Assembly: GCA_026770585.1 (NCBI GenBank)
Contig: MU646545.1
Span: 306,086 to 341,222, forward strand
Source: Baffinella frigidus
Taxonomy: Eukaryota; Cryptophyceae; Cryptomonadales; Baffinellaceae
Direction: 5' to 3'
Length of the DNA stretch: 35,137 nt
Of the stretch, positions 5,507 to 34,069 are shown piece after piece (the stretch's first letter is position 1; each line of letters begins with the position of its first letter). The position numbers and the translations under genes were made by a program. The notes beneath the pieces were generated by a model. The model saw only the letters and a program-made list of their open reading frames with translations. It ran no database searches and was not told where the DNA came from.

Positions 5507-8421
5507 GTCCGCGACCTCCTCGATGTTGAACTGTTCATTGTCGTTTGGGTCTGGCGGATTCGTAGCAGGGTCGCCGGTTTCTGAAGCGAGCGCATCACCC
5601 TAACCCACTCCACTCGTCCCGTGACACTCATACCCTCCCCCTCACCCCCGCAGGCCGCCGGGGCGCGTGAAGTGATGCTGCGCTCCGCCACCCACGCCTC
5701 CCTCCGCAGCGCCTCCGACGCCGACCTCGCCGCGTGCGCGTCCGGGCCGTGCCAGCTCATCATCCGCGTCGCACGCCCCGTGCCGCCGGAGCTGGCGCGG
5801 ACCCTCCGGGCGTTCCCGGGCGTGCTTGACTGCAGCTACCTCCCGCACGACTCCTTCGCGATCGTGGCAAGCCAGGTGCTTTACCCTAAACCCTAAACCC
5901 CTGAAACCCTGCTGAACCCCGAACCCTGAAGCCTAAACGACCGTCCTGGCGCACACGCTGTCCGGGTAAGACAACAGTCTTATAGGGGTTGTTCACGGAC
6001 GCGACACTGTGCTGACACTGTGCAGCCTTGCGAGACTGCCTCCAAGCGCCCTTTGACTACTCTCGCAGTCTCACAAGGCTGCAGGTGCTCCGCTGTCTCT
6101 GCTCTGCTCGGCTAGGGTTCACCCTTCTGTGACCCTGCTGCACAGTGCTCGTGGGACGGGAGATGTATCTTGACCACTGGGGAAGAAGAGACCGGGAAAC
6201 AACTTCCAGCCCCATGACGTTCCGCGTGTCGCGTGTTGGTGGTTGACGTGAACTGACGGAAGACGCCCGCAGGTGGACACCTCTTGACATTCCTCTCCCT
6301 CCCTGGCGTCTCCGAAGCACCTACGTCAACAGTCTTACGGGGGACTCCCTGCTGCACAGTGCTAGTGGGACGGGCGATGTATCTTGGCCACTTGGGGAGA
6401 AGCGACAGGGACTTCCAGTCCCATGCCGTTCCGCGTGTCGCGTGTTCGTGGTTGCTGTACACTTACAGCGTGTCGCGTGTTCGTGGTTGCTGTACACTTA
6501 CAGGGGACTCCCGCAGGTTGACACCTCCGGGCTCCTAGCCCTCACTGCGCTCAGTCATAACGTTCGAGGAGCCTTCGTTTCGAGCCCTCTTTGGACGTAT
6601 TAAGTGTATGGTCCGACGGCGCACGTTCAACAGAGTATCTTTCTCTCCCGCAGGTGAATACCTCCGCATTCCTCTCTCTCTCTCCGGCGTCTCCAAAGAA
6701 CTCACGTCAACAGTCTTCCGGGGGACTCCCTCAGTCAGTCCGCTCAACACCTCTTAACAAACACACTCATATCGTGATATGGTGACAGGTGGACCCAGTC
6801 GCTCCGAGCGCGTGGCGTGTCACGCCCTAGAGCTCATCTCGACCCCGCAGGCGCGAATGGCCCTCACTGAGTCGGCTCAACACTTCTTAACAAATCCATC
6901 ATGATATCCATACGATGACGTATCGTGATATGGTGACAGGTGGACCCAGTCGCGCTCCTCACCCTCCCCGGCGTCTCCGAAGCGCTCGCCTCGACCGAGA
7001 CGCCAAACCCGCCTCCCTAAATTCATCCGTGAGCACCATCCGAAGGCGCGGATGGCGCTCACTTAGTCTCCACAACACTTCTTAACACACACAAGATACG
7101 CTATGGCGTCCTGGCACACACGCCTGCCCGGGTACGCCAACAGTCTGACAACCTGGGGACTCCCGCAGGTGGACACCTCTCGACATTCCTCTCCCTCCCT
7201 GGCGTCTCCGAAGCACCTACGTCAACAGTCTTACGGGGGACTCCCGCAGTCAGTCAGCTCAACGCCTCTTAACAAACACACTCATATCGTGATATGGTGA
7301 CAGGTGGACCCAGTCGCGCTCCTCACCCTCCCCGGGGTCTCTGAAGCACTCGTTTCCACACCGAAAGCGAGGATGGTGCGCGCGCTGCACACCCCCTCGG
7401 ACAACGCCGCCGCGCTTCGTTCTCAGACGAGTGGAGCGGAAGGCGGGGCGGTGCTGCTCGAGGCTCTGGTATAACCCTCAATCCTCAAAACTCTAAACCC
7501 CATGACCCCTGGAATGCGCACGGAGCCTCGCTCTTATCTCAGAAAACGAGTTCTAAAACTCGTTTTCTTAAGTCAATTCCCCTACAAAATCGTCAACTTA
7601 TTCTTTACTCTCCGCATAAGTTGACAAATTTGTAGAGGAATTGACTTAAGAAAACGAGTTTTAGAACTCGTTTTCTGAGATAAGCTCCGTGCGCATTCGG
7701 CAGGCGGGGCGGTGCTGCTCGAGGCTCTGGTCTAACCCTTAATCCTGAAACCCTGGACCCTACACCCTGAACCGCACGTCGGGGAATGCAGAGTAGCTTT
7801 ACACCCCCCCTCTCCTCTTAATCCTGTTAATATATTCTTTTCTGAGAGGAGAAGGCCGCCGCGCCTCGTGCGCAGATGCGCCGTTCGCTTTGTATTATTA
7901 ATATTTTGTTATTGAATTATTATTATTAATATCATCCTTTCAATTTGTAAATCAGTTCTTCAGGCGAATCGCTCCCGTATCTCCCTTATCCGTATTATAC
8001 AGTCTGAGTGCTGTGGAAGGCGGGGCGGTGCCGCTCGAGGCTCCGGTATAACCCTAAACTTATCTCAGAAAAGGGATTCTAAAATTCGTTTTCTTAAGTC
8101 AATTCCTGTACAAATTCGTCAATTTATTCTTTTCTCTACGAATAAGTTGACATATTTGAATGGGAATTGACTTAAGAAAACGAACTTTAGAATCCCTTTT
8201 CTGAGATAAAAACCCGGACCCCTAAAGCCGGACCGTCGAATCCCTGAACCCCAAACCCCACCCCCCCACCCGTAAACCCTGAACCCTAAACCTCACCGCT
8301 CAACCGTGGTAAGCAAGGAGGCGGGTGGGGCGGTGCTGCTCAAGGCTCTGGTCTTACCCCTCCTCCCCAAACCCTGACGCCTGACGCCTGGACCCTGCAC
8401 CTGTGTAAGGGACGCGTGTAT

Positions 8422-8461
<40 letters not shown>

Positions 8462-32200: not shown

Positions 32201-34069
32201 TTAACCCTACACCCTGAACCCTGAACCCTGAACCCTGTGTTTGTTCGCGGATCCAGAGCTCGCTGTCTGGCCTCTAGTGCACACTGTAAACGTCGGCCCT
32301 TTGAAACGATTATTGATCCTCTCTTTTGCTGTTACAGACCCTAAACCTCAAACCCCAAACCCTAAACTCTCAACACCAAACCCTCAACACCCTAAACCCT
32401 TTATTCGTTCACCCCTTGGTACAAACCCTGGTGCAAACCCTGGTGCAATCCCTACTCACCGGTCAACGACCTCAATCTCCGCGTGCTTGTCGTAAATCAG
32501 GTCCGCCCTTCCAAACCCTAAACCCCAAGCCCTAACAGTATGGCAACCCGCACGCAGGTCGCCGGTGCGAATGGGCAACACCAAACCCTCAACACCCTAA
32601 ACCCTGTATTCGTTCACCCCTTGTTACAACCCCTGGTGCAGACCCTGGAGCAATCCCTACTCACCCCATTCCCGCACGCAGGTCGCCGGTGCGAATGGGC
32701 GGTGGTGGGCAGGGAACCACGCCGCGGAGACAGGAGTCGCCGACGACGACACAGGTTTGTCAGAGAGAGAGAGGAGAGGAGAGGAGAGAGAGGAGAGAGA
32801 GGAGAGAGAGAGGAGAGAGAGAGGGGTGGCGGGAGAGAGAGAGAGAGAGAGGACAGCAGGTTTGAAAGGGCAGGGAACCACGCCGCGGCGACAGGGGTCG
32901 TCGACGACAACACAGGTTTGTCTCTCACACCTGGTTGTATTTTTCGAACGAGCTTTCTTCTGTTTTTCAAACCGGCGACGCCGCAGGTTTTGTCGCCGCC
33001 AACCCTATGATTTAGAGGTTAGTTTCAACAAAATGGTTTTCGTGTGAGTTTCTGTTCGTCAAGCCTGTCGTCGAGTTGCTTTACAATAAAGTGTTCCATA
33101 TCTCCTGCAGGCGTCCCCCTGGCGTGGTTATGGAAGTGCTTTACAATCAAGTGATATCTCTCTTTCCTGCTGCAGGCTCGGAAGTGAGGGCGCGCGCGGA
33201 TACCGTGAACCCGTCCGAGCACGTCGCCATCGGCGCTCAGGTCTTTCTCACCTCCTGGACCAGAGTGGCGTCAATGTCGTTCCCATCTCCTGAACCAGAG
33301 TATCCAGTGTCGTGTCCGACTTCTTACTCACAGTGTCCAGAGTCGTGTCCGACTTTGTACGCAGCGTCGTGTATCGTGTCCAACGCCTGGTACCGAGAAC
33401 CCTTCCCAGCACGTTGCAGTTGGACGCCAAATCCGTTCTTTCGAAATTAAAGACGTTTCGGCGTCAGGCAGCATATTGCCGTGGGTCCCTGACCCGGTAG
33501 GGTGTCTGGTGTCGTATCCAAATACTGACCCACTTTCCCTTCCTGCAGGAGGGTGTGGTGGAGGGGGCGACTCTGGTACTTCAGGTTACGAGGCCCCCCC
33601 CCCCCTCCCCTTCTTCTTCTTTATTACTCTCGATACAGGTCCGAAATGAGGCCTTTGAGCCGTGAGTTGCGCGATGCAAAAGTCTATGAGTCTTAAGAAA
33701 CGGGCCCGCCTCAGAGATAGGAGCTATGCCCCCCCCTGCTCCTCCCGTAGACTAATCCGTGTGTGCCCTGGTCCTAACCGTCTCGATACAAACCCTCTTC
33801 CGCTTGTCTGGTACTACTCCCGTCCGGATAAGTTACCGTCCCGGTAAAGACCCAGTCCGGTTCAGTCAACCTCGGGTCTAAACCCAAACCCTGAAAATAA
33901 ACCCAAACCCTGAACCCTACACCCTCAAACCTTGGCCGCTCGTTTGCAGGTGGTAGGCAGCATGGTGCCGGACGGCCCTCAGGTCCCTCCCCTCCCCCCA
34001 CCCACTTGGGCACCCCGTGCCACTTGGGCACCCCGTCACCCACCTCTCTCTCTCTCAAACACACACACA

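What the first reader, a model, noticed from the sequence alone, without database searches (positions are those of the whole stretch)
6273..33425. Introns carry decayed ladders of the neighbouring exon edges, splice sites included
At least 17 of 35 introns contain copies of the preceding exon's end plus donor, of the following exon's start plus acceptor, or both. Clear cases are introns 2, 3, 4, 6, 9, 10, 11, 13, 14, 15, 23, 24, 25, 27, 31 and 32. Copies are shorter or more mutated away from the functional exon. This suggests that introns lengthen by repeated tandem duplication across exon-intron junctions, with one junction remaining in use. I know of intron creation by tandem duplication of AGGT-containing exons, but not of a gene where nearly every intron shows such ladders.
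Basis: partly seen in the sequence, partly recalled or inferred. Interest (0 to 1): 0.9.

Follow-up and report, generated by a model that had tools for sequence, protein, structure and literature searches.

The report
Introns grown from copied exon edges
In this gene of an unnamed eukaryote, half of the introns hold old, decaying copies of the neighbouring exon edge together with its splice site, which suggests that its introns lengthened by repeated local duplication across exon-intron borders.

Summary
I built a 35-exon model (34 GT-AG introns, one continuous frame, subtilisin-like S8 protein with PA domain). At a stringent cut-off 17 of 34 introns contain 35 copies of the adjoining exon edge, at 12 donor and 9 acceptor junctions. 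Copies are direct, not inverted, and local. The splice dinucleotide is intact in the 33 copies that reach it.

Copies differ from the live edge at 8% of first and second codon positions but 18% of third positions: copies drift freely while the live exon accepts mainly silent changes. That argues against misassembly and against live alternative exons. Nearer copies are better preserved (19 of 22 comparisons).

Most likely mechanism: repeated short duplication across one splice junction, the outer site staying in use, plus inserted elements and telomere-like arrays. Full tandem units are clear in only 4 of 21 ladders; 8 of 21 have unrelated sequence between copies, so filler or templated copying is needed too. 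Exon edges are copied more than unbiased models predict.

A second gene (Filamin repeat) on another contig shows the pattern. Genome-wide prevalence is unmeasured: most stretches asked for were withheld and the genome search rarely answered.

The parts
5345..35137 (+). S8 subtilisin-like gene with PA domain: 35 exons, 34 GT-AG introns; the last exon (34834-) runs off the window
   Evidence: continuous frame; Pfam; homologue alignment
6262..7303 (+). Intron 2 acceptor ladder: copies of the exon 3 start (functional 7304) at 6270, 6774, 6925 and 7166; copies have themselves been duplicated (6262-6349 and 7158-7245, 98%)
7469..8359 (+). Intron 3 donor ladder: copies of the exon 3 end (functional donor after 7468) at 7698, 8006 and 8324; identity 94, 89, 89%
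8543..8583 (+). Intron 3 acceptor copy of the exon 4 start (functional 8755)
9351..9402 (+). Intron 4 copy of the exon 5 start (functional 9553); covers 51 of 56 exon bases; TG in place of AG
10256..10807 (+). Intron 6 donor copies of the exon 6 end at 10256 and 10774 (functional donor after 10191); an N gap lies between
11109..11176 (+). Intron 6 acceptor copy of exon 7 (57 of 60 exon bases; functional 11344)
12414..12654 (+). Intron 9 donor copies of the exon 9 end at 12414 and 12622
13376..13784 (+). Intron 10 donor ladder: copies of the exon 10 end (GHGTH region) at 13376, 13494, 13643 and 13760
14530..15063 (+). Intron 11 donor ladder: exon 11 end copies at 14530 and 14906; the intron segment at 14307 recurs at 14693 and 15017
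17266..17396 (+). Intron 13 acceptor copies of the exon 14 start at 17266 and 17346 (the latter 98% over 49 nt); 317-nt spacer without homology
17979..18036 (+). Intron 14 donor copy of the exon 14 end (76%)
19391..19821 (+). Intron 15 donor ladder: copies at 19391, 19673 and 19798; 72 of 79 spacer bases recur at 85%
24135..24157 (+). Intron 21 donor copy of the exon 21 end
24622..24667 (+). Intron 21 acceptor copy of the exon 22 start (functional 24882)
25653..25693 (+). Intron 22 acceptor copy of the exon 23 start (functional 26299)
26587..26620 (+). Intron 23 donor copy of the exon 23 end
28217..28246 (+). Intron 25 acceptor copy of the exon 26 start (functional 28534)
32461..32576 (+). Intron 30: exon 30 end + donor copy (95% over 84 nt, 32461-32544), then exon 31 acceptor copy (32547-32576, 100%); a 57-nt GT..AG core (32501-32557) lies between their splice sites
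   Evidence: core by arithmetic and reading
32868..32922 (+). Intron 31 donor copy of the exon 31 end (93%)
33391..33417 (+). Intron 32 copy of part of exon 32; homology stops 13 nt short of the junction

Best explanation
The ladders are fossils of intron growth. A short segment that spans one splice junction (23-158 nt of detectable homology, median 33 exon bases) is duplicated in direct orientation. For a donor the first copy stays in use and the second falls into the intron; for an acceptor the last copy stays in use. The protein is unchanged and the intron gets longer. The retired copy drifts while the live edge changes mainly at silent sites. Palindromic elements, telomere-like 7-bp arrays and other filler come to lie between copies, either at the duplication itself or later, and the process repeats at the live junction, so older copies lie farther away. 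Shown: copies, orientation, adjacency, gradient, codon-position signature, and clear tandem units in 4 of 21 ladders. Inferred: the duplication step (slippage, unequal exchange or fill-in of staggered breaks), how filler got in, and the filter by exon-definition splicing that spares one-junction copies and removes whole-exon copies.
For: 35 copies in 17 of 34 introns. Direct 21 versus inverted 1 of 68 edges; the 7 edge matches of score 35 or more outside the own intron all lie in the other intron flanking the same exon. Mismatches per codon position 32/397, 33/397, 73/401. Gradient 19 of 22, p 0.0017. Clear repeated spacers in introns 2, 10, 11 and 15. In the 4 introns with both kinds of copy (3, 6, 21, 30) every donor copy precedes every acceptor copy, as outward growth predicts. 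In none of 35 rows does homology reach the far end of the exon; longest 57 of 60 bases. Second gene: 31 of 86 predicted edges direct, 0 of 86 inverted; codon positions 24/304, 26/307, 46/308.
Against: Only 4 of 21 ladders show clear tandem spacers and 8 of 21 show none or at most 16 nt, in intron 13 although the exon part is 98% identical. The intron 30 donor copy reads as an insert inside another duplicated unit (my reading). Unbiased duplication with selection and decay gives on average 26-31% junction families against 17 of 25 observed and edge-to-intron coverage ratios of 0.23-0.66 against 1.79, so something favours junctions or erases intronic copies faster than modelled. No RNA evidence: the exon model rests on frame, splice sites and homology.
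Confidence: 0.58

Rival explanations
1. Junction-targeted copying during break repair: breaks at or near exon-intron borders are repaired with a short templated copy of the local edge plus filler (arrays, elements, unique DNA), not by tandem duplication.
For: Unrelated sequence between edge copies in 8 of 21 ladders; intron 30 donor copy inside another unit (reading); exon edges over-represented against neutral models; telomere-like 7-mers at 16.3 per kb in introns against 0.37 per kb upstream of the gene.
Against: Templated insertion should also give inverted and more distant copies; inverted copies are 1 of 68 and no edge match of score 35 or more lies beyond the flanking introns. The decay gradient and the four clear tandem ladders fit tandem duplication better.
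Confidence: 0.25
2. Ordinary pervasive local duplication of all intron sequence; junctions look special only because exons are conserved and copies that reach into exons are easier to recognise.
For: Unmasked intronic 60-mers also have direct local copies: 284 of 1500, against 21 of 68 edges. False exons on opposite strands have direct copies at 14 of 64 and 18 of 80 edges. The pair-level shift test is weak: 19 of 54 pairs, null mean 11.1, 16 of 800 shifts at or above it.
Against: Family-level test 17 of 25 against null mean 7.66, 0 of 1291 shifts reach it. Simulations that include faster decay of intron pairs reach at most 0.50 junction families (48 runs) and an edge-to-intron ratio of at most 1.09 (60 runs). 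Exon interiors 1 of 22.
Confidence: 0.13
3. The copies are alternative or decoy splice sites kept by selection (alternative exons, recursive or stepwise splicing).
For: GT or AG intact in 33 of 33 copies that reach it; with exon-only detection 22 of 23 within 6 nt, while the next four intron bases match at 64 of 92.
Against: With exon-only detection the excess over neutral is not significant (p 0.10 and 0.08; 25 of 29 overall). First and second codon positions differ at 8%, like the intron side (25 of 306). No copy reaches the far end of its exon.
Confidence: 0.03
4. Assembly artefact: misjoined or allelic reads around repeats.
For: The window has an N gap in intron 6 and many arrays that assemble badly.
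Against: Copies differ from the live edge mainly at third codon positions, which assembly error cannot make; a similar excess appears in a second gene on another contig.
Confidence: 0.01

Closest known systems
Tandem duplication crossing one intron-exon boundary in the potato RdRp gene (Ma, Lan and Niu 2016, PMC4974935; abstract, introduction and results section read)
   Same: A direct duplication that crosses one splice junction and re-uses existing splice signals.
   Different: One event in one gene, which created a new intron. Here 35 copies lie at 21 junctions of one gene and the introns grew; the intron-creation signature is not met overall.
Rogers (1989) tandem duplication of an AGGT-containing exon segment; Hellsten et al. 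2011 (both known to me here only through PMC4974935)
   Same: Tandem duplication turns exon-derived sequence into intron sequence.
   Different: There the duplicated exon segment supplies both new splice sites. Here each copy carries one existing junction.
Internal tandem repeats at exon-intron boundaries of human paralogues (De Grassi and Ciccarelli 2009, PMC2812944; passages only)
   Same: Tandem repeats at exon-intron boundaries change gene structure.
   Different: Recent copy-number changes in duplicated human genes with novel introns; the passages I saw do not describe decayed multi-copy ladders over many introns of one gene.
Intron gain by double-strand-break repair (Daphnia work as summarised in a passage of PMC3488318; Farlow et al. 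2011 seen only as a reference in PMC3629103)
   Same: Short repeats associated with newly gained intron sequence.
   Different: There the repeats go with whole new introns; here repeats of 23-158 nt span existing junctions.

Membership tests
Rogers-type intron creation by tandem duplication | Intron 5' end resembles the next exon start, intron 3' end resembles the previous exon end | tested here: not met
   exon end versus intron end 4.0 of 10 (null 3.97); intron start versus next exon start 3.6 of 10 (null 3.2); no intron reaches 75% identity. A local version put 3 of 34 introns (6, 25, 27) at or just above the 99th percentile (scores 18-19 against 18), a weak hint
Duplication crossing one existing splice junction | Copy contains both exon and intron bases with the splice dinucleotide | tested here: met
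   33 of 35 copies reach the dinucleotide, all 33 intact; median 33 exon and 10 intron bases
Duplication crossing one existing splice junction | Direct orientation and head-to-tail adjacency | tested here: inconclusive
   Direct 21 versus inverted 1 of 68 edges. Repeated spacers clear in 4 of 21 ladders, partial in 5, none or at most 16 nt in 8, mostly masked in 4
Duplication crossing one existing splice junction | The outer copy is the one spliced | not testable with these tools
   Frame and homology support the functional copy; no RNA data
Tandem exon duplication with alternative splicing | Complete exon copy with both splice sites and constrained coding sequence | tested here: not met
   none of 35 copies reaches the far end of the exon; 8% change at codon positions 1 and 2, like the intron side
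Introner-like element insertion | Near-identical intron sequences repeated across many genes | not tested
   Only one 601-base stretch was searched genome-wide; it held a high-copy element

The most novel reading that the evidence does not exclude
In this genome exon-intron junctions are hot spots of a recurrent local duplication process that works as an intron-growth engine: it preferentially copies the live splice junction into the adjoining intron, over and over, in many genes, leaving a time-ordered stack of decaying exon edges from which past exon sequence and the order of events can be read.
Probability: 0.35. Interest if true: 0.85.

Novelty: new variant of a known kind. Interest (0 to 1): 0.63.

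Why it matters
How introns become long is usually put down to transposons and loose selection (general knowledge). Here half of the introns of one gene, and introns of a second gene, keep a readable record of stepwise growth by duplication across the splice junction itself. Each ladder gives relative ages and pairs a drifting copy with a constrained twin (the live edge), so the rate and bias of duplication at junctions can be measured. If junctions really are targeted, that points to breakage or slippage tied to exon borders.

Tried and rejected
Rejected: misassembly (third-codon-position signature); complete alternative exons; general intron creation by the Rogers model (weak hints in introns 6, 25, 27); selection keeping the copied splice sites (suggestive, not significant with exon-only detection: 22 of 23 within 6 nt, 24 of 25 within 10 nt, 25 of 29 overall; p 0.10 and 0.08).

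Weak or failed tests: pair-level circular shift (19 of 54; 16 of 800 shifts at or above it). The first extension attempt was spoiled by self-overlap and replaced. The script ended with an error after printing its table; I retyped its coordinates into. Frame concentration of mismatches without exon models has little power: window p 0.044, L027 0.085, L025 0.026 on 17 mismatches, L019 0.89, upstream 0.82. In one search one control strand (window reverse) also showed a third-position excess (19 of 111, against 8 of 112 and 8 of 114); the other (C178 plus: 18 of 128, 8 of 128, 13 of 124) did not. controls: false exons on opposite strands 14 of 64 (window) and 18 of 80 (C178) direct, 2 inverted each; L025 5 of 20 and 4 of 19 on its two strands; L019 1 of 14 and 3 of 12.

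Gene finder: trained on this gene; 28 of its 44 window predictions are exact known exons, so second-gene counts include false exons, and at least one predicted exon there looks like a copy.

Not reached: a test on conserved genes genome-wide (the Pfam PF00118 request did not complete); the organism's name. The 382-Mb genome is larger than the 193 Mb that I recall for Chromera velia, my first guess.
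Full report
WHAT IS THERE. The window carries one long plus-strand gene. Reading the sequence and requiring GT-AG borders and a continuous frame gave 35 exons from 5345 to the window end, median exon 70.5 nt and median intron 781 nt. The translation matches Pfam Peptidase_S8 (1.2e-34) and PA (1.3e-11). The best homologue aligns over 89% of the query at 33% identity. One weak spot: between exons 20 and 21 the homologue has extra residues, so an exon of a multiple of three bases could be missing there. 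Intron 6 contains an assembly gap.

THE COPIES ARE REAL. I aligned each exon edge (24 exon + 8 intron bases) to every intron. The own intron ranked first for 14 of 34 donor edges and 13 of 34 acceptor edges, with 1 expected in each case; 17 mid-exon queries gave none; opposite-side edges 5 of 66. With a cut-off at the 99.5th percentile of edges against foreign introns there are 35 copies in 17 of 34 introns, at 12 donor and 9 acceptor junctions. The splice dinucleotide is covered in 33 copies and intact in all 33; of the two others, one (intron 4) has TG where AG would be and one (intron 32) stops 13 nt short of the junction. Direct copies are found for 21 of 68 edges, inverted for 1 of 68 (score 30.0 at a 29.8 cut-off); for inverted matches the own intron ranks first in 4 of 68, with 2 expected. 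All seven edge matches of score 35 or more outside the own intron lie in the other intron flanking the same exon.

WHAT HAPPENED TO THEM. Mismatches between copy and live edge are 32 of 397 at first, 33 of 397 at second and 73 of 401 at third codon positions; on the intron side 25 of 306. Equal change at positions 1 and 2 and about double at position 3 is what one expects if the copy drifts freely while the live exon accepts mainly silent changes. Nearer copies are better preserved in 19 of 22 within-ladder comparisons (p 0.0017). Exon-side homology has a median of 33 nt, intron-side 10 nt, spacing 306 nt; no copy reaches the far end of its exon, the longest covering 57 of 60 bases. In the four introns with both kinds of copy (3, 6, 21, 30) donor copies precede acceptor copies.

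TANDEM OR NOT. One search compared the sequence between successive copies in all 21 ladders, arrays masked. In 4 it is clearly repeated (introns 2 acceptor, 10, 11 and 15 donor), though not between every pair of rungs; in intron 15, 72 of 79 spacer bases recur at 85%, interrupted by an inserted element (element by reading). In 5 it is repeated in part (3 donor, 21 acceptor, 25, both ladders of 30). In 8 there is nothing, or 16 nt at most (4, both ladders of 6, 13, 14, 21 donor, 22, 32); in intron 13 that is so although the exon part is 98% identical over 49 nt. In 4 the spacer is mostly masked (3 acceptor, 9, 23, 31). In intron 30 an 84-nt donor copy (95%) reads as an insert inside another duplicated unit, shortly before an acceptor copy, leaving a 57-nt GT..AG core. 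So head-to-tail duplication is shown for part of the ladders, and filler or templated insertion must be added for the rest.

ARE JUNCTIONS FAVOURED? Self-comparison of the gene, arrays masked, gives 25 families of local direct repeats; 17 include a live splice junction, against a circular-shift mean of 7.66 (0 of 1291 shifts reach 17). The weaker pair-level version gives 19 of 54 against 11.1 (16 of 800 shifts reach it). Simulated unbiased tandem duplication with removal of coding damage and with decay gives on average 26-31% junction families, at most 0.50 in 48 runs. Coverage by local repeats is 606 of 1843 bases at exon edges, 93 of 932 deeper in exons and 3643 of 19781 in introns, an edge-to-intron ratio of 1.79; simulations average 0.23-0.66 with a maximum of 1.09 in 60 runs. 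Direct sampling is less dramatic: 21 of 68 edges, 284 of 1500 unmasked intronic 60-mers (which include the rungs themselves) and 1 of 22 exon interiors have a direct copy; inverted 0, 153 and 0. The simulations do not model array turnover. I take junction preference as likely but not proved.

SURROUNDINGS. Telomere-like 7-mers (CCCTAAA type and variants) occur at 16.3 per kb in introns, 0.37 per kb in the 5.3 kb upstream and 0 in exons; 370 are C-rich on the coding strand and 65 G-rich. A CCCTAAA array contains neither AG nor GT, so this bias may reflect avoidance of stray splice sites (inference). A family of about 150-nt elements, palindromic by reading, occurs both upstream and in introns. 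A roughly 192-bp element in intron 21 has 39 further listed copies at 95-99% identity; only 40 of 2153 candidates were scored.

OTHER GENES. The genome has 382 Mb in 1364 contigs. Most of what I asked for is withheld: all five stretches and 17 of 20. Of the three readable ones, L027 carries on its minus strand a gene whose joined predicted peptides match the Filamin repeat (4.9e-6). It shows donor and acceptor copies with the same geometry, for example ...FFTSHIQ|gt repeated downstream and cag|VGVSIGLTGVPATFVI repeated upstream (which copy is live is my inference). With exons predicted by a small gene finder trained on the window gene (28 of its 44 window predictions exact), L027 and the readable parts of its two neighbours give 31 of 86 edges with direct and 0 of 86 with inverted copies. 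Opposite-strand false exons give 18 of 80 direct there and 14 of 64 in the window; L025 gives 5 of 20 and 4 of 19 on its two strands, L019 1 of 14 and 3 of 12. Codon-position mismatches for the Filamin gene are 24 of 304, 26 of 307 and 46 of 308; of 27 copies 19 keep the splice dinucleotide, 1 has it changed and 7 do not reach it. One of two control strands shows a third-position excess too. So the pattern is not confined to the window gene, but its prevalence is unknown.

KNOWN OR NEW. Duplication across a single junction is known from one potato gene, where it made a new intron (PMC4974935; abstract, introduction, results read). Tandem repeats at exon-intron boundaries are known in human paralogues (PMC2812944, passages). 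Rogers-type intron creation was tested here and is not met overall; a local version flags introns 6, 25 and 27 weakly. Ten paper searches were run; among the titles and abstract starts they listed I saw no gene with ladders of decayed exon edges in many introns, and searches listed nothing. The library lacks most subscription papers, so this is not proof of absence.

VERDICT. Confirmed observation; interpretation partly supported; a new variant of a known kind, with a testable claim of junction-biased intron growth.

Noticed in passing
5507-34833 (introns): Telomere-like 7-bp arrays fill introns (16.3 7-mers per kb) but are nearly absent upstream (0.37 per kb); 370 C-rich against 65 G-rich on the coding strand. 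A CCCTAAA array lacks AG and GT, so it may be splice-neutral filler.
   Followed up: partly
2993-3147, 7531-7687, 8059-8210, 27730-27886, 29527-29684: Family of about 150-nt elements, palindromic by reading, 82-98% alike, in introns and upstream.
   Followed up: no
24336-24528: Roughly 192-bp element in intron 21 with 39 further listed copies at 95-99% identity across the genome (only 40 of 2153 candidates scored).
   Followed up: no
28717-28791 and 29262-29336: Introns 26 and 27 share an 88% identical segment on either side of exon 27, as if part of one intron was copied past an exon.
   Followed up: no
32461-32576: Donor copy and acceptor copy enclose a 57-nt GT..AG core inside intron 30; it could be a relic of a much shorter ancestral intron.
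   Followed up: partly
L027 minus strand: Filamin-repeat gene on another contig with the same kind of exon-edge copies and a C-rich array bias on its coding strand.
   Followed up: partly
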